64,000 bases of DNA from a virus. The position numbers and the translations under genes are program-made. Shown piece after piece: positions 2,869 to 47,054 of this stretch (position 1 is the stretch's first letter; the number at the start of each line of letters is the position of its first letter). Location: positions 1 to 64,000 of the IMG/VR virus record IMGVR_UViG_3300026488_000001. The stretch is one strand, 5' to 3'. Under the pieces are notes generated by a model, which saw only the letters and a program-made list of their open reading frames with translations, did not search any database and was not told the origin of the DNA.

Positions 2869-3684
2869 TTAATTTCTATTCCTATCAATTTCTATTCCTA
2901 TCCATCTCCTATTTAACTTTTCACAAGCTACTGCTGTAGTTCCACTTCCAAAGAATGGATCAAGAATTATATCTTCAACAAAACTCCCTATTTTAATTAT
3001 TCTAATTACCAGCTCAACCGGAAAAGGTGCAGGATGACCTATTTTCTTAGCTCTTTCTGGTTTAATTTCCCAAATTTGCATCCCAAATTCTTTGAATTCA
3101 CCTGGAGTTAAAGCTGATTTCTTTCTTAGATCATCTGTGATATTTTTTCTTTTTCCAGCCTTTCTAAACCAGAGAATATATTCAACTTCTTGTACTATAG
3201 GAATACAACCAGGGGAACGGAATCGTCCATAACTCCCTAACAACCTATTAGCACCACCACTTGCATGTTTTCCTCTAATCTTTTTCCAAAGTATCATTTC
3301 TTTGTAATCAAAGATTTTATTTAAATTAACTATTAAATAAGCATGAGTAGGTAGAACAATAGATTTTTTAAAAACAGATTTGAGAGAGGTATGAGCATCA
3401 TCTATGTTTATGTAAAGATTTCCTCCTTTAACAAGCACTCTTTCAGTAAGAGTAAAAGTATTTAAAAGCATATTAAGATATTTTTGATAACCTTCTAGAG
3501 TCTTCTCCTTATCTTCATATTCTTTTCCTACAAAATAAGGAGGTGATGTAACAACCAAGTCTACACTCTCTTCAGGAAATTTCTTCATTATTTCTAAACA
3601 ATCTCCACAATAGAGTATTCCATTCTCAGTTTCAAAATATCTGTTTTCTTTAGGAAATATGTCTTTCCAATTTCTCACTTCCAT
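2869..3684 (-). CDS. DNA methyltransferase (beta class, N4/N6), C-terminally frameshifted
   Basis: The 271-residue protein has motif IV TSPPY (about 46-50) before motif I DPFFGSGTT near the C-terminus, the beta-class order of N4-cytosine or N6-adenine methyltransferases. TSPPY is commoner in N4-cytosine enzymes. The start ATG at 3684 has GGAGGGTAAAGAT. The N-terminus (WKDIFPKENRYFETENGILYC) closely matches the methyltransferase at 31011. A 16-bp tandem duplication shifts the frame after WIGIEI, so the last helix present in the paralogue (INEKYCEIAKRRIEEV) is replaced by DRNRN. Most catalytic parts remain, so activity may or may not survive. Confidence 0.88.
   Translation of the reverse strand: MEVRNWKDIFPKENRYFETENGILYCGDCLEIMKKFPEESVDLVVTSPPYFVGKEYEDKEKTLEGYQKYLNMLLNTFTLTERVLVKGGNLYINIDDAHTSLKSVFKKSIVLPTHAYLIVNLNKIFDYKEMILWKKIRGKHASGGANRLLGSYGRFRSPGCIPIVQEVEYILWFRKAGKRKNITDDLRKKSALTPGEFKEFGMQIWEIKPERAKKIGHPAPFPVELVIRIIKIGSFVEDIILDPFFGSGTTAVACEKLNRRWIGIEIDRNRN
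2871..2902 (-). repeat. 16-bp tandem duplication causing a frameshift
   Basis: The 16-mer AATTTCTATTCCTATC (plus strand) occurs twice back to back at 2871-2886 and 2887-2902. Removing one copy restores a methyltransferase frame that continues NEKYCEIAKKRIEEVKDVG and stops at 2811-2813, overlapping the next gene. The intact paralogue at 31.7 kb has a single copy of the equivalent sequence. Confidence 0.85.
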
Positions 3685-6365
3685 ATCTTTACCCTCCAAG
3701 TTTCTTTCTTTGGTGAATATATGAATTGATCAATTGCAGGTTCATCAAAATCTTCTTCATTAATCTTTTCAACCTCAACATTATGACTCATTTCTATTAA
3801 TTGTTTAAACATTAATAAATCTCTTACAAATCCTGTTCCTTCCAATTCAAGACAATCTGGAGTAATCACCTTTCTTTCCCATTCTATTCCTCCAAACCAA
3901 CTTCCATCCCCCATAGTAGCATCTATCCTAATAGGACAAGTTAACCAATCATAAATCCTTATTGGAATAATCTCAGCATTCTTTATTACAAGATTAAAAA
4001 CTGTAATTAATTCTCCAGGATAAACATCTATAACAATAGCATCGTGAACAGTTCCTATAAGAACAGACTTCAGATTTAATTTTTTCATATTCTCCCAAAG
4101 TCTAACTGCACTTGTAGTAGTTAAATCAGAAGCCGATGATTGAACAGGATAGTTAACAGCTTTACGCTTAGCTTCCTCTTTCTTCCACTTATCAGACTCA
4201 AAAGCCATTGGAACTGGAATAACTCTATTGAATGCTGTTACAACAAAACCATTAGCTAAAACAAACCTGTGCTGATTCTCTATCCATTTTCTAAGATTTG
4301 TATACCCTCCATAAAGATTCTCTACCCATTTCTCAGCTTCTTCTAAACTAATATTAAAATCTTCCGCAAGGGATTTAGCTGTTTTACCATAAAGAATTCC
4401 AAATACAACGGTTTTAGCAATCTTCCTTTCTTGTTTAGTAATTTCTTCCATTGGTTTATTAAATATCATAGATGCAGTTCTTTTATGAACATCTATCCCT
4501 TGCTTATAAGCATCTATAAGTTTGGTTTCATTAGCAAGACTTGCAGCAACCCTAACCTCAAGCTGGGAGTAATCAAAACTAACTATAAGCCCACCTTTAT
4601 CCTTCCACCTACTAACAAACATCCTCTTAATGTCAGACTTTGATGCAACAGTATGAAATCCTGATGACCATCTACCCGTTATTGTTCCTGCTATATTAAA
4701 TTCAGGGTGATACATTCCTAACTCGTCTATACTACTTATAAACCCATTTATATAAGTTGACTTCAATTTTTTGAAAAGTTTTATTCTGTAAAACAATTCT
4801 ATAAATCGTTTTTCTTCTGAATCCTCTGGAAGAGAGGAGAGATATGTATTAATGGCATTCTTACCTAAGGAAGGTTGTCCTTTTTGAGTTGTTTCTACCA
4901 CAGGTAATTGATAGACTTTAAATGCTACTTCCTTTTGATGTTTTTGAGAAGAAGGATTAAACCAAGATACTCTTCTTAGTTCTTTCCATTCCTTAATTTT
5001 AGGTAATTCCTGCAACTCTCTTTCAGCTTTTTCTATTTCAGACTGATATTTATAGTCAAGAAAATCTCTAACTTGTTTATCTACCTTAACTCCTTTTATT
5101 TCAGACTCGGCTATCATAATTGTAGCCTTATTAAGAGCTTCCCTAATCTCGTCACAGTTAAATACTTTAACTCTCTCAGAAAGCACTAAATAAATCTCTT
5201 TAGTAAAGAGGACATCAAATCCGGCATACTTGATTAGTAAAGAAGTTGGAATATTTCCATAATGTCTATCTTTCTTTAAACGATACCTTGACTTTAAATA
5301 TTCCTTAACCTCTTCATCCCATCTACCATCTAAACCTAACACCTTAACAGCTATATCTTTAAGTTGTAAAGTTTCTCCAAGTTGAACCTTATTAAATACA
5401 AAATGAGCTAAAAATAATGTGTCGTCTTTTACTTTAACTTTGGATAAATCCAAACCTGTTTTAGTTACCATAAATTTTAAATCAAATTTAATGTTATGCC
5501 CAATGACAGGAATAGTTTCTAATAACTGTTTTGTAAGTTGTAATACCTTTTGCTTAGAAATATTATCTACTACAACATTAAAAATATCATAATTATCTCC
5601 TGGTAAAGGGTCTTTTTGATATAAAGGAACTACATAACCATAAGGGTCATCAGGAAAACTAAAAGTTAGCATTATAATTTCATCCTTGAAAGGATCAAGC
5701 CCATTTGTTTCTATGTCAAAACAAAACCATTCGGGTTTTTCTTCAAGTTTCTTTTGTAAGAAGTTAATAGCTTTTTTAGGTTGTAAAGGTTTAATAAGAT
5801 TTTCCCATTCCATTTGTCTATTATCTATTACCTTACCAAATACAGATATAAATTTTTGCTTCCATTTAGGATTTCTAAGAACAGCAGCAGGATGAAAGTT
5901 AGGTATAACCTTAAATCCATTCCATTCAAGCTCCTTACCTACAAGTTCAGTAATTTTTCCTCGAATACCCAATCCTTTCAAAGCAGTATTACCTAAAGGC
6001 ATTATAACTACATCTTTGCCTTTAAACTTTTCTAGTTCTTCTAATAGGTAAGGTAAACAGCATTCTATTTCCTTATCAGTAGGAGGTCTAACTCCTTTAT
6101 TAGGATTGAATGGGTCTGCATAAGGGCAACACTTAACTACATTAGTAATATAGCAAACTTCTTCAAATTTCTTATTGAAAAGCCTAAATACCTCTTCCAA
6201 TAATTTACCTGATTTACCTACAAAAGGTTTTCCTTCAAAATCTTCTGTTCTTCCAGGGGATTCTCCTATTATTATAATATTAGGATTTTCTAAATTACCT
6301 CTCGGTTTAACAAAATGAGTTTTACATTGTTTATAAAGCTTACAGGTTTCGCATCTGGAGTTCAT
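3675..6365 (-). CDS. Family 4 uracil-DNA glycosylase / family A DNA polymerase fusion
   Basis: The 896-residue replicative polymerase has three parts. Residues 1-180 form a type-4 UDG: Cys cluster CETCKLYKQC, GESPGRTED, a second Cys set (VKCCP, ECC) for a [4Fe-4S] cluster, and HPAAVLR. Residues about 205-400 form a 3'-5' exonuclease with DIET, NIKFD and YAGFD. The rest is the polymerase: motif A DYSQLEVR, motif B RKIAKTVVFGILYG, motif C VHDA. Motif C normally reads HDE; here the Glu is Ala (codon 4038-4040). There is no 5' nuclease domain; a separate gene at 8797 supplies it. UDG domains fused to phage Pol A are known in SPO1-like phages. ATG at 6365 (GAGGGATAAG upstream) is preferred over GTG at 6377. 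Confidence 0.95.
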   Translation of the reverse strand: MNSRCETCKLYKQCKTHFVKPRGNLENPNIIIIGESPGRTEDFEGKPFVGKSGKLLEEVFRLFNKKFEEVCYITNVVKCCPYADPFNPNKGVRPPTDKEIECCLPYLLEELEKFKGKDVVIMPLGNTALKGLGIRGKITELVGKELEWNGFKVIPNFHPAAVLRNPKWKQKFISVFGKVIDNRQMEWENLIKPLQPKKAINFLQKKLEEKPEWFCFDIETNGLDPFKDEIIMLTFSFPDDPYGYVVPLYQKDPLPGDNYDIFNVVVDNISKQKVLQLTKQLLETIPVIGHNIKFDLKFMVTKTGLDLSKVKVKDDTLFLAHFVFNKVQLGETLQLKDIAVKVLGLDGRWDEEVKEYLKSRYRLKKDRHYGNIPTSLLIKYAGFDVLFTKEIYLVLSERVKVFNCDEIREALNKATIMIAESEIKGVKVDKQVRDFLDYKYQSEIEKAERELQELPKIKEWKELRRVSWFNPSSQKHQKEVAFKVYQLPVVETTQKGQPSLGKNAINTYLSSLPEDSEEKRFIELFYRIKLFKKLKSTYINGFISSIDELGMYHPEFNIAGTITGRWSSGFHTVASKSDIKRMFVSRWKDKGGLIVSFDYSQLEVRVAASLANETKLIDAYKQGIDVHKRTASMIFNKPMEEITKQERKIAKTVVFGILYGKTAKSLAEDFNISLEEAEKWVENLYGGYTNLRKWIENQHRFVLANGFVVTAFNRVIPVPMAFESDKWKKEEAKRKAVNYPVQSSASDLTTTSAVRLWENMKKLNLKSVLIGTVHDAIVIDVYPGELITVFNLVIKNAEIIPIRIYDWLTCPIRIDATMGDGSWFGGIEWERKVITPDCLELEGTGFVRDLLMFKQLIEMSHNVEVEKINEEDFDEPAIDQFIYSPKKETWRVKIWK

Positions 6366-6404
6366 CTTATCCCTCACTTTACTTACAATTTATCAGATAG
6401 ATAA

Positions 6405-19189: not shown

Positions 19190-19330
19190 CTACCCCCATT
19201 GAAATAGGGGGATTTCGTAGTCTCCACTACCCTTCGTGGGGTTACTTGGGGGACTACAAGCTGGTTTATCAGCTTCTCCCGTCGCAACGGGTATCCAGCT
19301 GTTAACTCTCCCTCTGACCCACTTGAAGTG
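19190..19330 (-). ncRNA. Predicted omega RNA (reRNA) at the IS right end
   Basis: The 3' end of tnpB carries dense GC-rich stems. CCCCC/GGGGG lies next to the end (19192-19209). Beyond it, GTAGTC (19217-19222) pairs with GACTAC (19252-19257) around an inner CCAC/GTGG stem. This is where TnpB omega RNAs arise; the guide would be the phage sequence just outside 19190. Exact ends are not determined. Confidence 0.4.
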
Positions 19331-20524
19331 GTAGAGGGAAACAGTTTCAAGGGAGAGATTTTCTTTCCCTCCCTTCAATATGTTAACAGCTCCGTTTAAA
19401 TCTGCGTTTACCTCCCCACAATTAGGACAGATTACATAATGTTGATGCGGTCTCCTAACAGAACTACCACACTTAAAGCACTTTGAGCTTGTATAGTATT
19501 CTGGAATCGGTTCAAACCCGATTCCAGCTGAGGTTAACTTTTCTTTGAGTCTCTTTACTACGTAATCTCTTATCCAAAAATTGTGTAGGAGAACGTTTAG
19601 TTTCCCAAAATCCTTACCTTCCCTGATTCCCGTTAAGTTTCCTACATAAACTTTCTTAACTCCTCTTGAAGTGCAGATTTCTACTACATAGTTGAGCATT
19701 GCGTTAATGGACTGTTTTAATCTCCTGTCTCTTTTGACATATAGCTTTTGGAGTCTCTTTGAAGTGTAAGTTCCACTTTTGTTAAGAACAGACTGACACT
19801 CAGCTATTCTCCTGTTCCACCTCTTGTAGTCCTTGATTAGTTCTCTGCTTTTAAACTGGAAAACTTCTATTCCGTTATCGGTTTCTACCGCAAGAGTTAG
19901 GAAGTTGCGAATTCCAAGGTCTATCCCTGCTAACTTTTCTCCTCTCGGTTTCTTTTCTGGTTCTTCCAGATTAACGGTTACATAGCACCACCACTCTCCG
20001 GCTTTACAGAATACTTCGGCTCTACCAAAACTTTTAATGTTCTCATAAGGAATAGAATATTTTGCTTTGACCTTCAGTCTTTTACTGCTTATATCTTTCG
20101 GAACTGTTAGTTCAAAGGAAAACTTCCCTAAGCGGTAGCTTCTGCTACACTTAACATAGATATTCATTGGAATAGTTTGGTTTTTCTTTCGGTTCTTCTT
20201 GTATTTCGGTGGAGAAACTTTCTTTATGTGGGAGGGTAGTTTCCCTTCTAATTTTTTGAGCTTCAAAAATGACTTCCAGTCTTCTGAGAGCTTTTTCAGA
20301 ACTTCTTGTGCTATGTCTGAGGGAAGAGACTTATACTCTGGTAGGTCTTTTGCTAAACTGTAGATAGCTCCGTTGCTGACTCTAACTTTCCCAAAAGAGA
20401 AATACTGTTGTCTCAAAATGTAGTTAACACGATTGTAAAGGTAGCTACATCTTAATTGAAGTCTTCTTAACTTCTGTCTTTCTTCTCCAGTAGGATAGAG
20501 TCTAACCTTGATTATTCGTTTCAT
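19190..20524 (-). CDS. tnpB: TnpB RNA-guided nuclease
   Basis: The 444-residue protein has the TnpB layout. There is a helical N-terminal WED/REC part (KVRLYPTGEERQKLRRLQ), RuvC-I AGIDLGIRNFLTLA (Asp), RuvC-II region KKVYVGNLTGIREG, a zinc finger CFKCG...CPNCG, and RuvC-III NADLNGAVNIL (Asp). At the usual RuvC-II Glu position the sequence has Gly (VGNL), as in some IS605 OrfB proteins where the acidic residue is displaced; activity is therefore not certain. TnpB cuts DNA guided by an RNA from the element's right end. The C-terminal about 40 residues are encoded by that right end. Confidence 0.92.
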   Translation of the reverse strand: MKRIIKVRLYPTGEERQKLRRLQLRCSYLYNRVNYILRQQYFSFGKVRVSNGAIYSLAKDLPEYKSLPSDIAQEVLKKLSEDWKSFLKLKKLEGKLPSHIKKVSPPKYKKNRKKNQTIPMNIYVKCSRSYRLGKFSFELTVPKDISSKRLKVKAKYSIPYENIKSFGRAEVFCKAGEWWCYVTVNLEEPEKKPRGEKLAGIDLGIRNFLTLAVETDNGIEVFQFKSRELIKDYKRWNRRIAECQSVLNKSGTYTSKRLQKLYVKRDRRLKQSINAMLNYVVEICTSRGVKKVYVGNLTGIREGKDFGKLNVLLHNFWIRDYVVKRLKEKLTSAGIGFEPIPEYYTSSKCFKCGSSVRRPHQHYVICPNCGEVNADLNGAVNILKGGKENLSLETVSLYHFKWVRGRVNSWIPVATGEADKPACSPPSNPTKGSGDYEIPLFQWG

Positions 20525-32913: not shown

Positions 32914-33591
32914 ATGAGAGTAGTTCAGATAGCAGGGAGGAAAAGTTCTGGAAAAACTTTTCTTTCTGATTTACTCTTTCATTCTTTTTCAAAAGAAGGT
33001 TATAGGATTTATAAGATTAGCTTTGCTTCTAAGTTAAAGTTTACACTTAGAAAGTTGGGTGTATCCAAATCAGGAATAGTAAAAAATTTATCTTTTGAGG
33101 ATTTTTATTCAAGCTTACAAGATATATTTTTTACTTACTTTCCAAAGTATATAAGAAGTCGTTTAATAACTCAGACGATTAAATATTTTTATGAGTTAAG
33201 AGATGCTTATAACATTTTCTTTATTCAGAAAGATTTTGAGAATGGATTTAGGAAATTAGCACAGTTGATAGGAACTGAAATAGTAAGGGAGATAGATGAA
33301 GACTTTTGGGTTAAAGAAGTAGTTAGAAGTATAAAACAAGTAGAAAAATGTGTTGATTTTGTTTTGATAGATGACTGGCGTTTTCCTAATGAAGATTTAA
33401 CTAAATATTTTCCTGAACGGAAAGTATTTAGGATTTTACTTGTAACAAAAGATGAACAAAAAGATAATCACATTTCTGAAAACCTTGTTAATCAGTTAAG
33501 AGTGGATTTAAAAGTAGAAAGGTATGGGGATAAATATAATCCGGATTTTGAAAAGATAATTAGGAGGGTTCGAGGTGAGGAATATACTTAG
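32914..33591 (+). CDS. Deoxynucleoside monophosphate kinase (T4 gp1-like)
   Basis: The 225-residue P-loop protein begins VVQIAGRKSSGKTFLSDLL (Walker A at about 7-14). ISFASKLKF, the conserved RKLAQLIGTEIVREID segment and LIDDWRFPNE (Walker B-like) are typical of phage dNMP kinases. It phosphorylates dNMPs, and perhaps modified dNMPs, to diphosphates. It overlaps the start of the C5 methyltransferase by 17 bp. Confidence 0.8.
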   Translation: MRVVQIAGRKSSGKTFLSDLLFHSFSKEGYRIYKISFASKLKFTLRKLGVSKSGIVKNLSFEDFYSSLQDIFFTYFPKYIRSRLITQTIKYFYELRDAYNIFFIQKDFENGFRKLAQLIGTEIVREIDEDFWVKEVVRSIKQVEKCVDFVLIDDWRFPNEDLTKYFPERKVFRILLVTKDEQKDNHISENLVNQLRVDLKVERYGDKYNPDFEKIIRRVRGEEYT

Positions 33592-35425
33592 TCTTTTTGA
33601 CGGTATTTCTTGTGGTAGGTTAGCATTGGATAGAGCTGGAATTAAATATGAAAAATATTATGCAAGTGAAATTGATAAATATGCAATAGCGGTAACTAGG
33701 TATAATTATCCTGATACAATATTTGTCGGAGACATTAGGAATCTAAAAGGAGAAGATTTTAAAGATATAGATTTAATAATGGGAGGAAGTCCTTGTTTTG
33801 CTGAAGGAACAAAAGTTTTGACAAAAGAAGGATATAAAAATATTGAAGATATTAAACTAAATGATTATGTCTTAACACATAATAAAAGATTTTGTAGAGT
33901 ACTAGATATAGGTTATAGATATGCTGAGACTTATATTGTAAAAGCTCAAGGAATTTTATCTATTGAAACAACTTTTAATCACCCATTTTTAGTTAGAGAA
34001 ATAAGTTGGAAATGGAATAGCAAAAAAAGAACTAAAGAAAGAGTTTGGTCAGAACCAAAATGGAAAAATGCGGAGAAGTTAACAAAAAATGATTTTATAG
34101 GAATTCCTATAATTGAAATTGAAGAACTAGCATTGTCACTACAGTTAGCAGTAACTAAAGTTTATAAAGTTAATAGTTCTATTTATTTCTATAAAAGACC
34201 TAATAAGTATATTATTGAAGGAAGAATTGTAAATCAAAATGATACTTATTTTGTTGAATTTAGAACAGGCAATAGAAAACAGCGAAGAGCAGTAGTTATA
34301 GATGGAATAGTTTGGGTTCCTGTAAAAGAAGTAATAAAAACAGGACTATTTAAGAAAGTTTATAATTTAGAAGTAGAAAACGATAATACATATACAGCTA
34401 ATAATGTTATTGTTCACAATTGTCAAAATTTTAGTTTTTCTGGTAAAAAGCAAGGAATGATAACAAAAGAGAAAATAGAAGTAACTACGCTTGAACAATA
34501 TTTGGAATTAAAGGAACAAGGGTTTGAATTTGAAGGACAATCTTATCTCTTTTGGGAATTTGTAAGATTATTAAAAGAAATTAAACCTAAATGGTTTTTA
34601 CTTGAAAATGTTAGAATGGCCAAAAAGTGGAGGGATGTTATTACAAATGCTTTAGAAGTAGAACCTATTGAAATTAATTCTGCTTTAGTTTCAGCTCAAA
34701 ATAGAAGAAGGTTATATTGGACTAATATCCCTGTTAAGGGATTACCAAAAGATAAAGGTATTTTGTTGAAAGATATATTAGAGGATGAAGTTGATGAAAA
34801 ATATTATCTTGATAAAGGGATAGAAATTTTAAATAAACAGAAAGGAGGTCTTTGTAAAGAGATTGGTAAACTTGAAATTAAAGGTTTTGATTGTATAAGA
34901 AGAGTTTATAGTCCAGAAGGAAAGTCTCCAACATTGATTGCAATGCAAGGAGGTTATAGGCAACCTAAAATAATTGAAGAAAAGTATTACCTATCAGAGA
35001 AACATTTTAAAGCATTTTTAAAAAGTTATAAAAACTTTAGTTTAGATGATAGAAACAGTAAATCTAAACCGTTACTCGCAACTTATTATAAACAACCACC
35101 TCATTGCCCTTATATTTTAGATAAGGACAAATCTCTTTGTATGGATGCTTGTTATTACAAAGGTGGGAACTTAAAACAATATTTTGAGAAACATAGAAGA
35201 CAACTTGTTTTTAAAGTTAATGAAGAAAATAAGGTTAGAGTTAGAAGACTTACTCCTCTTGAATGTGAAAGACTACAAACTCTTCCGGATAATTATACTC
35301 AATATGGTTTATTTGATGACGGAAAGATAAGAAAGATTTCAGACACGCAAAGGTATAAAATGATAGGGAATGGTTGGACTGTTGATGTAATAGCTTGGAT
35401 TTTCTCATTTATAAATGATGAATGA
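33575..35425 (+). CDS. DNA (cytosine-5) methyltransferase with an intein in the catalytic motif
   Basis: The 616-residue precursor (GTG start, AGGAGGG upstream) splices to about 407 residues. Extein motifs: I SLFDGISCGRLAL, IV GGSPC-QNFS, VI LLENVRM, VIII QNRRRLYW, IX RRLTPLECERLQ, X MIGNGWTVD. Between VIII and IX lies a long target-recognition domain. The intein (residues 74-282) separates GGSP from the catalytic Cys, which doubles as the +1 splicing nucleophile. The enzyme is therefore inactive until splicing. No restriction partner is adjacent. Confidence 0.92.
   Translation: MRNILSLFDGISCGRLALDRAGIKYEKYYASEIDKYAIAVTRYNYPDTIFVGDIRNLKGEDFKDIDLIMGGSPCFAEGTKVLTKEGYKNIEDIKLNDYVLTHNKRFCRVLDIGYRYAETYIVKAQGILSIETTFNHPFLVREISWKWNSKKRTKERVWSEPKWKNAEKLTKNDFIGIPIIEIEELALSLQLAVTKVYKVNSSIYFYKRPNKYIIEGRIVNQNDTYFVEFRTGNRKQRRAVVIDGIVWVPVKEVIKTGLFKKVYNLEVENDNTYTANNVIVHNCQNFSFSGKKQGMITKEKIEVTTLEQYLELKEQGFEFEGQSYLFWEFVRLLKEIKPKWFLLENVRMAKKWRDVITNALEVEPIEINSALVSAQNRRRLYWTNIPVKGLPKDKGILLKDILEDEVDEKYYLDKGIEILNKQKGGLCKEIGKLEIKGFDCIRRVYSPEGKSPTLIAMQGGYRQPKIIEEKYYLSEKHFKAFLKSYKNFSLDDRNSKSKPLLATYYKQPPHCPYILDKDKSLCMDACYYKGGNLKQYFEKHRRQLVFKVNEENKVRVRRLTPLECERLQTLPDNYTQYGLFDDGKIRKISDTQRYKMIGNGWTVDVIAWIFSFINDE
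33794..34420 (+). other. Mini-intein (209 residues) in the C5 methyltransferase
   Basis: The segment begins CFAEGTKVLTKEGYKNIEDI (block A) and contains TTFNHPFLV (block B T-x-x-H). It ends with KVYNLEVE-NDNTYTANNVIVHN (blocks F and G), followed by Cys. All splicing residues are present: Cys1, block B His, and terminal His-Asn with +1 Cys. No LAGLIDADG or other endonuclease motif is seen, so it has probably lost mobility. Confidence 0.9.
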
Positions 35426-36781: not shown

Positions 36782-36816
36782 TATATTAATAAACAAAATC
36801 CATTTATTAAGCTGGG

Positions 36817-36885
36817 GCAGGGTAGGAGAGCCTGAGCTGGCCACTCAGGTTAAAGGGATTCCCAGCGTCCCTTCTCCTACCCTGC
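36817..36885 (+). ncRNA. GC-rich three-way-junction element before the terminase
   Basis: A perfect 13-bp outer stem (GCAGGGTAGGAGA, 36817-36829, with TCTCCTACCCTGC, 36873-36885) encloses two hairpins. CCTGAG/CTCAGG has a 7-nt loop (36831-36849) and AGGGA/TCCCT has a 9-nt loop (36854-36872). Together they account for almost every base. It is strikingly GC-rich for this genome and has no T-run after it, so it is not a simple terminator. It may be a packaging RNA, a cis-regulatory RNA or a pac site. Confidence 0.55.
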
Positions 36886-36916
36886 AAATCCCTAACAATC
36901 TAAAAAGAGTTCAATA

Positions 36917-37321
36917 ATGCTAAACCAACTAATCAATAAACTAAAAACCTTACCTCCTAAAGAGAAGTCTATATTAAAGAGATTAATTGAAAAGTTCCAA
37001 AATGACCCCCAATCCTTACTCCAATTGTATGCTGAACTTGAAGGTTATAAAGAAGTACCAGTAGATATAATAACATTTATAGAACACCCTAAATATTTAG
37101 GCCTTTCTTTAGGGGGTAAGATATACCCAGTATGGAAAGAAGCTCTAAAAACAATTTTCCCTAACCCATTCTACTCTCCTTATTATGAGTGCATCTACAC
37201 TGGAGCAATAGGGGTTGGGAAATGTCTTGGAAATCAACAACTTATAGAAGTTTATATGAATGAAGAAGATATAAAGAAATATGGATTAGAAGAGTTCATA
37301 ATAGAGGAAAGCAATGAGTAA
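36917..37321 (+). CDS. Terminase large subunit, N-terminal part fused to split intein N-half
   Basis: The 134-residue protein has residues 1-102 as the N-extein, ending in the first half of Walker A (YTGAIGVGK). Residues 103-134 begin with Cys (CLGNQQLIEV...) and form a 32-residue intein N-fragment, then the frame stops. The missing part of the motif (TTIARIV) is encoded 1.3 kb downstream at 38647. Functional terminase needs trans-splicing with the product of 38245-40203. The stop overlaps the start of the homing endonuclease gene. Confidence 0.9.
   Translation: MLNQLINKLKTLPPKEKSILKRLIEKFQNDPQSLLQLYAELEGYKEVPVDIITFIEHPKYLGLSLGGKIYPVWKEALKTIFPNPFYSPYYECIYTGAIGVGKCLGNQQLIEVYMNEEDIKKYGLEEFIIEESNE
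37223..37318 (+). other. Split intein N-fragment (32 residues)
   Basis: Begins CLGNQQLIEVYMNEEDI directly after the Walker A Lys. Its length is close to the short N-part of the atypically split AceL-TerL intein, which also sits in a terminase gene. Block A only; block B is on the other half. Confidence 0.85.
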
Positions 37322-38288
37322 TCCCAAGATAGTAATAACAGAGTTTAGAAAACCTATTATCTTCATTCATACTCTAGATGAGCTTCTTTTCCATCTAAAA
37401 GAAAAGACTAAACATTTTACCCACCCTGTTGTTCGTCTTACTCCTGAGATAATTGAATGGTTTAACTCACTTCAAGAACCTTTTTATGTTCCAAAAGGTA
37501 AATATGCTAAATTCCATACAGTAATATGGAAAGAGGTTTATGGTAAAGAGGAGTGGTTTAGCTCTCAAATAATAAGAGCAAATTTAAATCCATATTACTA
37601 CTACATTAGGGGTTATACAGAAGATGAGGCTAAGGTTTTAATGGAGGAAATGCGTAAAAAGAATAGTGAAGGTGTTTCCAAAGCTTTCTCTTCTATGACT
37701 CCAGAAGAAAGAAAAGCTAAATTTGGTGTGTTTTCTGATGAATATCTGAAAAAGAAGTATGGTAAAGAAGAAGGTTATAAGAAGTGGAAAGAAAGGAATG
37801 AAAAGTGGGCTAAGACAATGTCCCAAAAAGAGAATGTTATCCCTTATGGTAGGAATGATGAGTATATAGGATTTTCTAAAATATCACAACAACTGTTTGA
37901 TAAGGTTGTTCAAAGGTTAGCTGAGTACTTCCCTATGGGAGTAATGGGAATTCAATATGCTACTTTTAAAGAGGGTAAGAAAGTTCAGGCAAAACATTTT
38001 ATGGAAAATGAGAAAAGATTTGGTACTAAGTTTGTAGACTTTTATGATGAAATATCTAATGTTGTAATAGAGTTTGATGGTGCAGAATTCCACGATGATC
38101 CTGAAAGAGATTTAAAAAGATTGGAAGTAATTTATAATGCATCAAAAGCTTTTATTCTTCGTATTCCAGAGGATTTACCAAGACGAGTAGGATTTGACAA
38201 ACTTGCTAGAGTGATAGCAGACTACTTAATAAAAGTGAGAAACTATGGCTTTAAAGAAACTGAGAATTCCAATAGGGTTACTGTTTAA
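37314..38288 (+). CDS. Vsr-like/PD-(D/E)xK homing endonuclease between the terminase halves
   Basis: The C-terminal part of this 324-residue protein has KFVDFYDEISNVVIEFDG followed by AEFHDDPERDLKRLEVI, a nuclease core like Vsr and related EDxHD enzymes. A middle segment (KNSEGVSKAFSSMTPEERK) resembles NUMOD-type DNA-binding repeats. Endonucleases of this type are found between the halves of fractured, split-intein-containing genes in metagenomic phages. It overlaps both neighbours (8 bp and 44 bp), so the three genes form one tight unit. Confidence 0.8.
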   Translation: MSNPKIVITEFRKPIIFIHTLDELLFHLKEKTKHFTHPVVRLTPEIIEWFNSLQEPFYVPKGKYAKFHTVIWKEVYGKEEWFSSQIIRANLNPYYYYIRGYTEDEAKVLMEEMRKKNSEGVSKAFSSMTPEERKAKFGVFSDEYLKKKYGKEEGYKKWKERNEKWAKTMSQKENVIPYGRNDEYIGFSKISQQLFDKVVQRLAEYFPMGVMGIQYATFKEGKKVQAKHFMENEKRFGTKFVDFYDEISNVVIEFDGAEFHDDPERDLKRLEVIYNASKAFILRIPEDLPRRVGFDKLARVIADYLIKVRNYGFKETENSNRVTV

Positions 38289-38646
38289 AAAGTTAGGAAT
38301 AGAACATAACCCTGATAAGGAAGAGCAAGTTCATAACCCTCCTTGCGATGTTTATATTTCTACTCCAGAAAACAACTTGGCTAAAGTAAATTTCTTTGTA
38401 ACTAAAGAAACTGAAGTATGTGAATATGAATTAGAGAACGGTTCTACTCTTATAACCTCAACTAAACATATAGTACTAGAGAATGGAAAAGAAACTTTCA
38501 TAGATAAAGCTGAGTCAGTAGATAATGTAGATGGTAAGTCTTATAAGATATGTACTAAGAGGTATAGAGGCAAAGAGGTAGCTTATGACTTAAGTATAGA
38601 CTATCCTCACCTTTACATTACTCCTGATGGGTCTATTCATCATAAT
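38245..38646 (+). other. Split intein C-fragment (134 residues)
   Basis: Contains block B (GSTLITSTKHIVL, T-x-x-H) and blocks F/G (AYDLSIDYPHLYIT, SIHHN), with +1 Thr. Most of the intein, including block B, is on this C-half; that is the atypical split arrangement. No endonuclease domain. Confidence 0.87.
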
Positions 38647-40203
38647 ACTACGATAGCAAGAATTGTTTTGCTATATGATCTTTATAAACTTCTCTTATTA
38701 AGAGATCCTCACAAAAAATTTAACCTAATACCTACTGATAGAATAGTTATAGCTCTCTTCAACGCTACATTAGGACTAGCTGATCAGGTTTTATATGAAC
38801 CATTTAAAAACCTAATAGCCAATTCAGAATTTTTCCAAGAACACTTAGATGCTGAAAATAAGAAAACATCAGAGATTAGGTTTGTTAACAACATAGGTAT
38901 AGTAGCAGGTTCAAGATTTACTCATACCCTTGGTATGGCTGTATTTGGAGGTTTATTAGACGAAGCTAATTTTGATGTAATATCTAATCAAGCTCAGGAA
39001 AGTTATAATGCACTTCTTAGAAGAATGGAATCAAGGTTTGCTCAGGCTGGTGGCAAACTTCCTGGACATCTTTGCCTTGTTTCTTCTGAAAAGAGTCCTA
39101 CCGATTTTGTTTCTCAACACAGAGAAAAAGTAAGAGGAAAACAAGGAGTAATAATCTTTCAATATCCTATATGGGAAGTTAAAAAACATTTAGGTATCTA
39201 CTCAGGTAAAACCTTCAAAGTATTTATAGGAGATGAAACTACTGATCCATTCATAATAGAAGATGAATCTCAACTACAATATATAGATGAAACCAAAGTA
39301 ATAGATGTTCCAATAGAGTTAAAAGATAAATTTGAACTAGACTTACATAATGCTATAAGAGACTTAGCTGGTTATTCAGTAGGTTCAACTCATAGAATTT
39401 TTAAATCTAAAAACATACTCATAAAACAAGCATCCGTTATTAACCCTGTTAACCAACAGATAATAAGACTTTCCTTTAATGACAAATCAGATGTCTTAAT
39501 TAACTACTTCAACATAAACTACCTAAAGAACCCACTCTTTAAAGAATGTCCAAGAGTTATCCATATAGACCTTTCTATAACAGGAGACAGAACAGGTATA
39601 GCTTCAGGTTACATAAAAGGTTACAAAACAATAGAAAGAGTTGATCCACTAACCTTAGAAAAACATATTTTCTCTGAACCAGAAGTAGTTATTGATTTTG
39701 TAACCTATATAGAACCTTTACCAGGAGAGAGAATTCCATTTTACAAGATAAGACAATTCATAGTAGATTTATCAAGAATAGGTTACCCAGTAGCAATGGT
39801 AACTACTGACGGATTCCAATCTGAAGATATGAGACAACAGTTAACTCAAATGGGTTATAAAACTGCTTTACTATCAGTAGATAGAACTAAAGACCCTTAC
39901 CTTTCCTTTAGAGATGCTATATATGAAGAAAGAGTTTGGATACCTAAACACGACTTACTGATTAAAGAACTATTACATGTAGAAGATATAGGTAAGAAGA
40001 TAGACCATCCTCAAGAGTTTCCTGATGGTACTAAAGGTAGTAAGGATGGTGCTGATGCAGTAGTAGGAGTTTACTGGAACTTGGTAACTAATAAAGATTT
40101 AATTAAACAATTAGCTTTCCAAAGAATTCATAAAACAGAAGTCAAAGAAGAAGAACAAAGGCAAAGTGTAGCAAATCTTTTTTGGAAAGATCAAATAGAT
40201 TAG
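38245..40203 (+). CDS. Terminase large subunit, split intein C-half plus C-terminal part
   Basis: The 652-residue protein has residues 1-134 as the intein C-fragment, ending LYITPDGSIHHN. The extein then starts TTIARIVLLYDLY, completing Walker A. Later parts include the nuclease domain: HIDLSITGDRTGIASG (Asp), TTDGFQSEDM and the C-terminal GSKDGADAVVGVYW. After splicing the terminase would have about 620 residues, normal for T4 gp17-type enzymes. The start lies inside the endonuclease gene and has only a weak ribosome site. Confidence 0.9.
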   Translation: MALKKLRIPIGLLFKKLGIEHNPDKEEQVHNPPCDVYISTPENNLAKVNFFVTKETEVCEYELENGSTLITSTKHIVLENGKETFIDKAESVDNVDGKSYKICTKRYRGKEVAYDLSIDYPHLYITPDGSIHHNTTIARIVLLYDLYKLLLLRDPHKKFNLIPTDRIVIALFNATLGLADQVLYEPFKNLIANSEFFQEHLDAENKKTSEIRFVNNIGIVAGSRFTHTLGMAVFGGLLDEANFDVISNQAQESYNALLRRMESRFAQAGGKLPGHLCLVSSEKSPTDFVSQHREKVRGKQGVIIFQYPIWEVKKHLGIYSGKTFKVFIGDETTDPFIIEDESQLQYIDETKVIDVPIELKDKFELDLHNAIRDLAGYSVGSTHRIFKSKNILIKQASVINPVNQQIIRLSFNDKSDVLINYFNINYLKNPLFKECPRVIHIDLSITGDRTGIASGYIKGYKTIERVDPLTLEKHIFSEPEVVIDFVTYIEPLPGERIPFYKIRQFIVDLSRIGYPVAMVTTDGFQSEDMRQQLTQMGYKTALLSVDRTKDPYLSFRDAIYEERVWIPKHDLLIKELLHVEDIGKKIDHPQEFPDGTKGSKDGADAVVGVYWNLVTNKDLIKQLAFQRIHKTEVKEEEQRQSVANLFWKDQID

Positions 40204-45076: not shown

Positions 45077-45651
45077 TGGGACTTATACAAGAGGTTAATC
45101 AATTGTTGGAGAAAGTTAATAAACCAGATCCAAGACAGATAGTAGAAGTTCCGAAAAGGTTAAGAAGAAAGAATAGAGTAACATTAAAACAGATTTATTT
45201 AAATTTCCCTTACTCCGTTTATAAGTACGATCCTATTCCTCCTCAACCTGTAAAGATTAGAAGAATAGAACTAACTGAAGATGAATTAGTAATGACTGTT
45301 CACGCTTATGTTAAATCTGTTTCAAGACCAGGAAAGTATCATAGTTGTGTTTTACAGTTGGCAAGACCGAATACTAATATAGATTGGAATTGGGATTTAC
45401 CAGTAGCAGTAAGATGTTCTTGTGAGTCTTTTAGATATTTCCTAGCTTATGCTCTTTACTCTCATGGAGCTTTATTTGGTAGACCATCTCTCTGGAATAA
45501 AGTACCTGCTAAAATACGAAATCCTATGAACATCCCTCAAGTATGTTCCCATTTGTGCTTATTAACTGAATATTTAATCAAACATAAAATAATAAAAGGT
45601 AAGGTAATTTGGAATACCCTAAAATATAGGGATGGTGGTAGGAAAAAGTAA
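45076..45651 (+). CDS. SWIM-type zinc-finger protein with shared leader
   Basis: The protein has 191 residues. After the leader MGLIQEVNQLLEKV comes a beta-rich part (about 30-110), then AVRCSCESFRYFLAYALY ... RNPMNIPQVCSHLCLL, a SWIM-like C-x-C ... C-x-H zinc site. SWIM fingers bind DNA or proteins. With the leader it may enter the capsid and contact DNA. The stop overlaps the homing endonuclease start. Confidence 0.65.
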   Translation: MGLIQEVNQLLEKVNKPDPRQIVEVPKRLRRKNRVTLKQIYLNFPYSVYKYDPIPPQPVKIRRIELTEDELVMTVHAYVKSVSRPGKYHSCVLQLARPNTNIDWNWDLPVAVRCSCESFRYFLAYALYSHGALFGRPSLWNKVPAKIRNPMNIPQVCSHLCLLTEYLIKHKIIKGKVIWNTLKYRDGGRKK

Positions 45652-47054
45652 TGTTTAAAAACAAACTTTATCAAGATAAAGATTGGCTTTACCACCAATA
45701 TTGGGAATTAGGTAAATCTACCAGACAGATAGCGAAAGAATTTGGTTATGGTATTAATACAATAAGAAGGTGGATGGACAAATTTGGAATTCCAAGAAGA
45801 AGTGTTGATGAGGGAATTCAGCAAAGATTTAAAGCACCTTACAGGAATAGAGATTGGTTGTATAATGAGTTAATTATAAAAGGCAAATCAAGAATTCAAG
45901 TAGCAAGAGAGTTAGGAGTTAATAGAGAGACTATTGATAAATGGGCAAAGAAGTTTGAAATAGGTTATCCAGAGAAACTTTACCAGAATAAAGAATGGTT
46001 AGAAGAACAATATGTGAAGTTAGGAAAATCAACTATTCAGATAGCAGAAGAATTAGGAGTTTCTGAAACTGTTATATTAAAGTGGTTAAAGAGATTTGAA
46101 ATACCGATAAGAAGATGGCATAAGAAAGGAAAGTATACTAACAAAGAATGGCTTTATAATGAGTATTATGTTAAAGGAAAATCTATAAAACAAATTGCTG
46201 AAGAATGTAATGTAAAACCCTCTTCAGTTAGATATTGGTTTGATAGGTTTGGTTTTGTATCAAGAGAAAAGTTTAAACCCGTTATTGGAAAAGAGTGGTT
46301 ATACCAAGAATATGTAATTAGAAAGAAGTCAATGAAAGAAATTGCAAGAGAGTTAGGAATTCATTATAAAATTGTTTCTAATTTATTAAAACAGTACGAT
46401 ATTCCTATAAGGAATGTAAATGAAGCCGTTTCTTCTGTTTCCAACTTTTATCACAAACTTTCAGATTATTTTAGACAAGTTCTAGATGGGTCTTTAACTA
46501 AACCAAAATCTTTGAACTCTAATTCTTGTTATCAACATACTGATAAACACAAGAATTATATAGAATGGCTAAGGCAACAGTTTATTGATGAAAGTTTGGA
46601 GTGTGGTAAAATTTATGAAAAGGAATATAAAAAATTAAATGCTAAAGCATATTGTTTCTCTACAAGAAGATATCCTTGCTTAACAGAACAATATTATAGA
46701 TGGTATTCAGATAGTAAAAAGATAATACCAGATGATTTAAAACTTACTCCAACAGTTGTTCTTCATTGGTATATTGGTGATGGGAGTCTAATTAAACCAT
46801 CAAAAGGTAAACCTTTCATCCATTTCGCTACCAACTGTTTTACTTTTGAAGAGGTTAACTTTTTGGTAGATCAACTTAATGAACTTGGACTAAAAGCATA
46901 TTTAAGAACTGGAACTGAATACAGAACAAAAAGGAAATTTCCTTATATAGTTTTATCAGTAAAATCAACTTTGGATTTCTTTGATTTTATAGGTTCTTGT
47001 CCAGAACCAATTAAACAAGACTATAATTATAAATGGGAATTAATTAACCTATAA
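45651..47054 (+). CDS. LAGLIDADG homing endonuclease with five helix-turn-helix repeats
   Basis: In this 467-residue protein, residues 1-260 contain five copies of a roughly 52-residue unit (x-NKEWLYNEY-x-KGKS-x-x-QIAEELGV ... KWLKRFEIPIR), each with a helix-turn-helix. Residues about 275-467 carry two LAGLIDADG-type helices (YFRQVLDGSLTK and VVLHWYIGDGSL). It is a free-standing gene inserted between head genes and does not lie inside a recognisable intron or intein. The repeat array would read a long DNA site. Confidence 0.85.
   Translation: MFKNKLYQDKDWLYHQYWELGKSTRQIAKEFGYGINTIRRWMDKFGIPRRSVDEGIQQRFKAPYRNRDWLYNELIIKGKSRIQVARELGVNRETIDKWAKKFEIGYPEKLYQNKEWLEEQYVKLGKSTIQIAEELGVSETVILKWLKRFEIPIRRWHKKGKYTNKEWLYNEYYVKGKSIKQIAEECNVKPSSVRYWFDRFGFVSREKFKPVIGKEWLYQEYVIRKKSMKEIARELGIHYKIVSNLLKQYDIPIRNVNEAVSSVSNFYHKLSDYFRQVLDGSLTKPKSLNSNSCYQHTDKHKNYIEWLRQQFIDESLECGKIYEKEYKKLNAKAYCFSTRRYPCLTEQYYRWYSDSKKIIPDDLKLTPTVVLHWYIGDGSLIKPSKGKPFIHFATNCFTFEEVNFLVDQLNELGLKAYLRTGTEYRTKRKFPYIVLSVKSTLDFFDFIGSCPEPIKQDYNYKWELINL

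What the first reader, a model, noticed from the sequence alone, without database searches (positions are those of the whole stretch)
36917..40203. Fractured terminase gene: atypical split intein in Walker A with a homing endonuclease gene between the halves
Seen: one frame stops 32 codons after the Walker A Lys, following an intein-like Cys. An endonuclease frame overlaps that stop. A third frame begins with intein block B, ends in HHN, and continues with the missing TTIARIV of Walker A and the terminase nuclease. Known: fractured genes with split inteins and Vsr-like endonucleases were described from metagenomes, and AceL-TerL is an atypically split terminase intein with a very short N-part. 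Inference: packaging here depends on trans-splicing, and the endonuclease spreads the broken arrangement. The 32-residue N-part makes it a possible thermophilic relative.
Basis: partly seen in the sequence, partly recalled or inferred. Interest (0 to 1): 0.9.

Follow-up and report, generated by a model that had tools for sequence, protein, structure and literature searches.

The report
Split-intein-fractured phage terminase gene
A probably heat-loving phage carries its essential DNA-packaging gene broken in two by a selfish element (two halves of a self-splicing protein with a DNA-cutting gene between them), so the packaging motor should work only if the halves splice together; this is a clear, well-preserved new example of a kind of element already described from metagenomes.

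Summary
In the window, terL is split between Lys and Thr of Walker A by a 1,424-bp insert (37223-38646). The insert holds a 32-aa N-intein, a 324-aa endonuclease gene that overlaps both neighbours, and a 134-aa C-intein ending HHN. Four relatives (84-93% identical C-exteins) have the uninterrupted site, and the predicted spliced protein (620 aa) matches their 621-622 aa. The intein catalytic residues are intact, both terL halves are under purifying selection (dN/dS 0.03-0.06), and no second terL exists in the 88,755-bp record. DNA identity to the empty alleles is lowest at the insertion site, as expected from homing with co-conversion. The endonuclease belongs to the Vsr-like/EDxHD family.

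A motif survey of viral contigs gave dozens of similar fractured genes; 33 distinct ones have both intein halves recognised, and most are terminases. Cultured Campylobacter phage F379 also has a fractured terL. So this is a typical member of the known 'fractured gene' class (AceL-TerL, GOS-TerL, Cat), not a new kind of system. What is special: a likely thermophilic host, a slightly earlier split point than most, and sequenced empty-site relatives. Splicing and cleavage themselves are not shown.

The parts
36917..37321 (+). terL N-part ORF (134 aa): N-extein (102 aa, to Walker A Lys) plus 32-aa IntN and stop
   Evidence: collinear with residues 1-102 of intact TerL in L001-L003
37223..37318 (+). 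IntN, CLGNQQLIEVYMNEEDIKKYGLEEFIIEESNE; Cys1 follows GK of Walker A
   Evidence: resembles IntN of fractured gp41 of Vibrio phage vB_VmeM-32, CFVAGEEIEVEMNEQTHQEYLRFKNEN
37223..38646 (+). whole inserted element, 1,424 bp, absent from L001-L004
   Evidence: empty-site alignment
37304..37310 (+). Shine-Dalgarno-like GAGGAAA inside the N-part ORF, upstream of the endonuclease ATG (translational coupling inferred)
   Evidence: sequence
37314..38288 (+). homing endonuclease gene, 324 aa; family motif KYGKEEGYKKWKERNEKW and Vsr-like/EDxHD catalytic domain
   Evidence: hhalign 97.6% to endonucleases of other fractured genes; alignment A5; top PDB fold match 3r3p I-Bth0305I
37866..38246 (+). catalytic domain (residues about 185-311) with conserved D242, E253, G256, H260, E286
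38245..38646 (+). IntC, 134 aa, block B TSTKH, ends HHN
   Evidence: PDB intein hits; Hint fold, top match Npu DnaE; family profile hits VidaL, gp41-1, CatC
38647..40203 (+). terL C-extein (518 aa) starting TTIARIV: rest of the ATPase plus nuclease domain
   Evidence: 84-93% identical to intact TerL of L001-L004; 38% to Thermus phage phiLo, 41% to Rhizobium phages

Best explanation
It is a mobile 'fractured gene' element in terL. N-TerL-IntN and IntC-TerL are made as two proteins, the intein halves associate and trans-splice, restoring GAIGVGK-TTIARIV and a 620-aa large terminase. The Vsr-like/EDxHD endonuclease translated between them cuts intein-less terL alleles at Walker A in co-infecting phages; repair from the broken allele copies the whole 1,424-bp block with short flanks. 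Shown here: anatomy, empty sites, intact catalytic residues, family membership of both parts, selection on both halves, local divergence at the site. Inferred: splicing, cleavage, homing.
For: Empty sites in four relatives, spliced length 620 vs 621-622. Catalytic intein positions present (Cys1, block B TxxH, HHN, Thr+1) and a Hint fold. Endonuclease homologous to those of other fractured genes, with D242/E253/G256/H260/E286 kept and I-Bth0305I as top structural match. At least 33 distinct viral loci have the same N-part/endonuclease/C-part order; at least 23 of 39 C-exteins are terminases. dN/dS 0.064 (N) and 0.044 (C) vs L001. Lowest-identity 60-bp windows of the 1.78-kb gene lie on the insertion site, with pN 0.14 within 60 nt vs 0.02 elsewhere. 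No other terL in the record. Endonuclease not found in the intein-less relatives' records.
Against: No splicing or cleavage data. The record is 88,755 bp and may be incomplete, so a second terL elsewhere is not fully excluded. The 3r3p structural match has Foldseek E = 0.12. The IntN is too short to score on its own. No close relative of this endonuclease was found, so selection on it could not be measured. Much of the measured selection on terL may predate the insertion.
Confidence: 0.9

Rival explanations
1. A self-splicing RNA intron with an intron-encoded endonuclease joins the terL exons at the RNA level.
For: An exact in-gene insertion with a HEG also fits an intron; RNA splicing of terL is reported for phage ICP1 (PMC10448857).
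Against: No Rfam intron match in the insert. The last 402 nt are an open frame in phase with the C-extein and encode intein blocks ending HHN; the first 96 nt are open in phase with the N-extein and start with Cys.
Confidence: 0.03
2. The element is a dead relic: TerL halves work without ligation, or packaging is supplied by a second terminase or a helper phage.
For: The record may be incomplete, and no splicing was measured.
Against: Intact catalytic residues in intein and nuclease, open overlapping frames, dN/dS 0.03-0.06 in both halves, no other terL in the record. Unligated complementation through a cut P-loop would be unusual (general knowledge).
Confidence: 0.05
3. Sequencing or assembly artefact (frameshift, chimera) creating a false split.
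For: Metagenome contig; the frames differ.
Against: The 1,424-bp block holds three coherent coding segments with family-conserved motifs, exact empty sites in four relatives, and the same order in dozens of unrelated contigs and in cultured phages F379 and vB_VmeM-32.
Confidence: 0.01

Closest known systems
Fractured genes with split inteins and Vsr-like (EDxHD) homing endonucleases (Dassa et al. 2009, NAR 37:2560; not held here, seen through citations)
   Same: Order N-part, free-standing endonuclease, C-part; EDxHD-type nuclease; phage gene
   Different: Host gene is a TerL of the phiLo-like clade from a probable thermophile; IntC carries the IPIGLLF segment that most others have in IntN
AceL-TerL, GOS-TerL and the consensus Cat atypical split TerL inteins (PMC11766414; 6dsl in PDB)
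   Same: TerL extein, short IntN (25, 37, 30 aa vs 32 here), long IntC (104, 115, 104 vs 134)
   Different: +1 residue Thr here, Cys there; split one element earlier than in most fractured relatives; kinship within the group unresolved
Fractured gp41 of Vibrio phage vB_VmeM-32 (KU160494)
   Same: 27-aa IntN of the same look, endonuclease overlapping the C-part, early split
   Different: Extein is a replicative helicase; IntC about 30% identical
Fractured terL of Campylobacter phage F379 (MT932329)
   Same: Fractured terL in a cultured phage, endonuclease overlapping both parts
   Different: Endonuclease has a GIY-YIG-like end; sister phages CPt10/CP220 keep a contiguous intein in the same gene
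Contiguous mini-intein in the clamp-loader Walker A of huge phage LR756508
   Same: Closest intein by BLAST, 32% over residues 4-134
   Different: Not split, no endonuclease, other extein

Membership tests
Fractured gene / split intein with HEG (Dassa type) | Host gene split into two ORFs at an intein insertion site | tested here: met
Fractured gene / split intein with HEG (Dassa type) | IntN and IntC with intein splicing motifs and catalytic residues | tested here: met
   Cys1; TxxH; HHN; Thr+1. IntN alone gives no database hit
Fractured gene / split intein with HEG (Dassa type) | Free-standing endonuclease ORF between the halves, of the family found in other fractured genes | tested here: met
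Fractured gene / split intein with HEG (Dassa type) | Halves trans-splice | not testable with these tools
   needs co-expression
EDxHD (Vsr-like) homing endonuclease | Conserved acidic/His catalytic positions | tested here: met
   D242, E253, G256, H260 invariant in 29 proteins, not part of the search motif
EDxHD (Vsr-like) homing endonuclease | Vsr/I-Bth0305I catalytic fold | tested here: met
   top Foldseek hits 3r3p_B/A, prob 0.95, TMt 0.59, but E only 0.12; DUF559 weak
EDxHD (Vsr-like) homing endonuclease | Cuts the empty allele | not testable with these tools
   empty alleles exist; cleavage not assayed
Atypical split TerL intein (AceL-like) | Short IntN (about 25-40 aa), long IntC, TerL extein | tested here: met
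   32/134 aa; survey median IntN 38
Atypical split TerL intein (AceL-like) | Closest phylogenetic relative is AceL-TerL | tested here: inconclusive
   AceL itself not in the tree; long branches, no well-supported sister
Group I/II intron | Catalytic RNA core in the insert | tested here: not met

The most novel reading that the evidence does not exclude
A natural, thermophilic, early-split TerL intein in which only about the first 13-20 residues of the short half are needed, with naturally occurring empty alleles in very similar phages: a complete, heat-stable trans-splicing plus homing system.
Probability: 0.45. Interest if true: 0.5.

Novelty: new member of a known kind. Interest (0 to 1): 0.38.

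Why it matters
It gives one of the cleaner natural tests of the fractured-gene idea: a broken essential gene together with closely related unbroken alleles, and local sequence divergence that points to copying by the endonuclease. A heat-stable short-N split intein would also be a useful protein-ligation tool. The survey shows that such elements are common in phages and sit at Walker A of terminases, SbcC/gp46-like ATPases, helicases and clamp loaders, with endonucleases that keep one conserved motif but carry different catalytic ends.

Tried and rejected
Close-relative searches for this endonuclease in viral contigs, GTDB genomes and phage records found none. The intein alone gave no close viral-contig relative. 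RNA intron: rejected. The Pfam Terminase_6N search does not see this TerL, so a protein search was used. The intein tree left the window unplaced because of long branches. Checking whether the co-converted flank came from an L004-like donor was uninformative. TnpB as a pointer to the host found nothing.

Full report
Anatomy. The N-part (36917-37321) is 102 residues of TerL up to the Walker A lysine plus 32 residues that begin with Cys. The middle ORF (37314-38288, 324 aa) starts inside the end of the N-part, behind a GAGGAAA site. The C-part (38245-40203, 652 aa) starts 44 nt before the end of the middle ORF, runs 134 residues to HHN and continues TTIARIV into 518 residues of TerL. The insert is 1,424 bp long, which is not a multiple of three.

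Empty sites. A viral-contig search with the C-extein found four relatives with 93, 93, 88 and 84% identity. All have one continuous terL, GAIGVGK-SSIARV or GAIGIGK-TTIARI, 621-622 aa where complete. The DNA alignment shows the insertion exactly between the Lys and Thr/Ser codons. The protein predicted from splicing the window halves is 620 aa. Neither the endonuclease nor the inteined methylase of the window is found in the relatives' records, which may be incomplete. The window's own 88,755-bp record has one terL only.

Trace of homing. Against L001 and L002 the gene is about 89% identical, but the lowest 60-bp windows of the whole 1.78-kb gene lie on the insertion site (63-67%). Within 60 nt of the site pN is 0.14 and pS 0.64, versus about 0.02 and 0.34-0.40 elsewhere, while L001 and L002 have no amino-acid difference from each other there. 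This is what co-conversion of flanks from a diverged donor would leave; the inference rests on one filled allele. Away from the site dN/dS is 0.03-0.05 in both halves, so both are constrained, though part of that constraint may predate the insertion.

Intein. The IntC hits solved DnaE inteins (E 1e-6); an AlphaFold model made with 35 related IntC (mean pLDDT 73) matches Npu DnaE and many other inteins, including the atypically split Cat. The profile of IntC parts from fractured genes hits VidaL, gp41-1 and CatC best. The nearest single sequence is a contiguous intein at the Walker A of a clamp loader in huge phage LR756508: it aligns with IntC residues 4-134 from its own residue 20 onward, so the split lies near residue 19 of a contiguous intein and the last part of the 32-aa IntN is probably an extension (inference). 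Of 33 distinct fractured loci with both halves recognised, 25 have the xG-x-(F/L)(Y/F/H)-type segment in IntN by a regular expression, and several of the other eight have a variant of it there. In the window that segment (IPIGLLF) is in IntC, as in L141 and apparently in gp41 of vB_VmeM-32. This is a minor variant of split position.

Endonuclease. Pfam gives only a weak DUF559 match. hhalign to five endonucleases from other phages, most of them lying between gene halves, gives 97.6%. A degenerate DNA motif for KYGxxEGxxxWxxRxx(K/R)W found 112 stretches in viral contigs, of which 80 could be read. By simple pattern rules 46 have a Vsr-like end, 18 GIY-YIG, 4 HNH and 12 other. In the alignment of 29 Vsr-like members, D242, E253, G256 and H260 are invariant and E286 nearly so, although none of these positions was in the search motif; the KYG...W residues are invariant by construction. 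The predicted catalytic domain is confident (pLDDT about 90) and its best match among 350,542 PDB chains is the I-Bth0305I catalytic domain (prob 0.95, TMt 0.59, E 0.12).

How common. Of 67 distinct endonuclease tails, 44 have an intein C-part ending HN within 1.5 kb downstream. IntN is 25-63 aa (median 38), IntC 116-155 aa, and the C-part usually overlaps the endonuclease by 8-41 nt; window values are 32, 134 and 44. At least 23 of 39 C-exteins scanned match PHROGs terminase families, 10 SbcC-like, others DnaB, clamp loader and protease (the window's own TerL is one of the 39 and passes no PHROG at that cut-off). Recognition of halves used regular expressions, so single loci may be misjudged. 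Cultured phages show it too: F379 terL and vB_VmeM-32 gp41 and a RecA-like gene.

Site. Walker A of this TerL clade attracts inteins: among 39 further relatives of the C-extein with readable junctions, L038 has a contiguous intein with a LAGLIDADG-like region at the same GK|TT site and L031 one a few residues upstream, while the others are uninterrupted.

Thermophily. The IVYWREL index of window proteins gives 68 C, against 71 C for Thermus phage phiLo and 35-40 C for three mesophilic phages. The index is affected by base composition (31% GC here), so this is suggestive only. The nearest cultured TerL relatives include phiLo but also Rhizobium and enteric phages.

Literature. PMC11766414 lists AceL-TerL (25/104 aa, Cys+1), GOS-TerL (37/115, Cys+1) and Cat-TerL (30/104, Cys+1). 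PMC12350094 cites Dassa 2009 for the EDxHD/Vsr endonuclease domain; PMC3943268 describes EDxHD enzymes and I-Bth0305I. Dassa 2009 and Taylor 2011 themselves are not held, so what they report rests on these citations and on general knowledge. Two searches for papers on split inteins with terminase, one with thermophily and one with homing endonucleases, returned no title that describes a thermophilic natural case.

Verdict. Observation confirmed, interpretation supported; a new member of a known kind. Its worth lies in the matched empty alleles, the co-conversion-like trace, the early split and the probable heat stability.

Noticed in passing
window 36811-36890 (+): GC-rich three-way-junction RNA in the leader of terL, z -4.4 against shuffles, no Rfam match; kept at about 92% identity in L001/L002, absent in L003.
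   Followed up: partly
window 33575-35425 (+): Contiguous intein in a cytosine-C5 DNA methylase, inserted at the catalytic PC motif (GGSP|C...VHN|CQNFSFSG); Pfam Intein_splicing over cut-off; the gene was not found in the records of L001-L004.
   Followed up: partly
window 45651-47054 (+): 467-aa protein with repeated helix-turn-helix-like segments and a LAGLIDADG-like end (WYIGDGSL): probably a second, free-standing homing endonuclease.
   Followed up: no
window 19190-20524 (-): TnpB-like transposon protein with no relative found in GTDB genomes by motif scan.
   Followed up: partly
window 3675-6377 (-): 900-aa family A DNA polymerase whose N-terminal part looks like a uracil-DNA glycosylase fusion.
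   Followed up: no
L015 1346-4692 and L011 78-2273: Campylobacter phage F379 has a fractured terL with a GIY-YIG-type endonuclease while sister phages CPt10/CP220 have a contiguous intein in the same gene: a before/after pair for the fracturing step.
   Followed up: partly
L076-L155: Endonucleases of fractured genes share one conserved motif but carry Vsr-like, GIY-YIG, HNH or other ends, suggesting swapping of catalytic domains.
   Followed up: partly
L038 2729-5641; L031 2342-5686: Contiguous LAGLIDADG-like inteins at or next to the same Walker A site in distant TerL relatives.
   Followed up: partly
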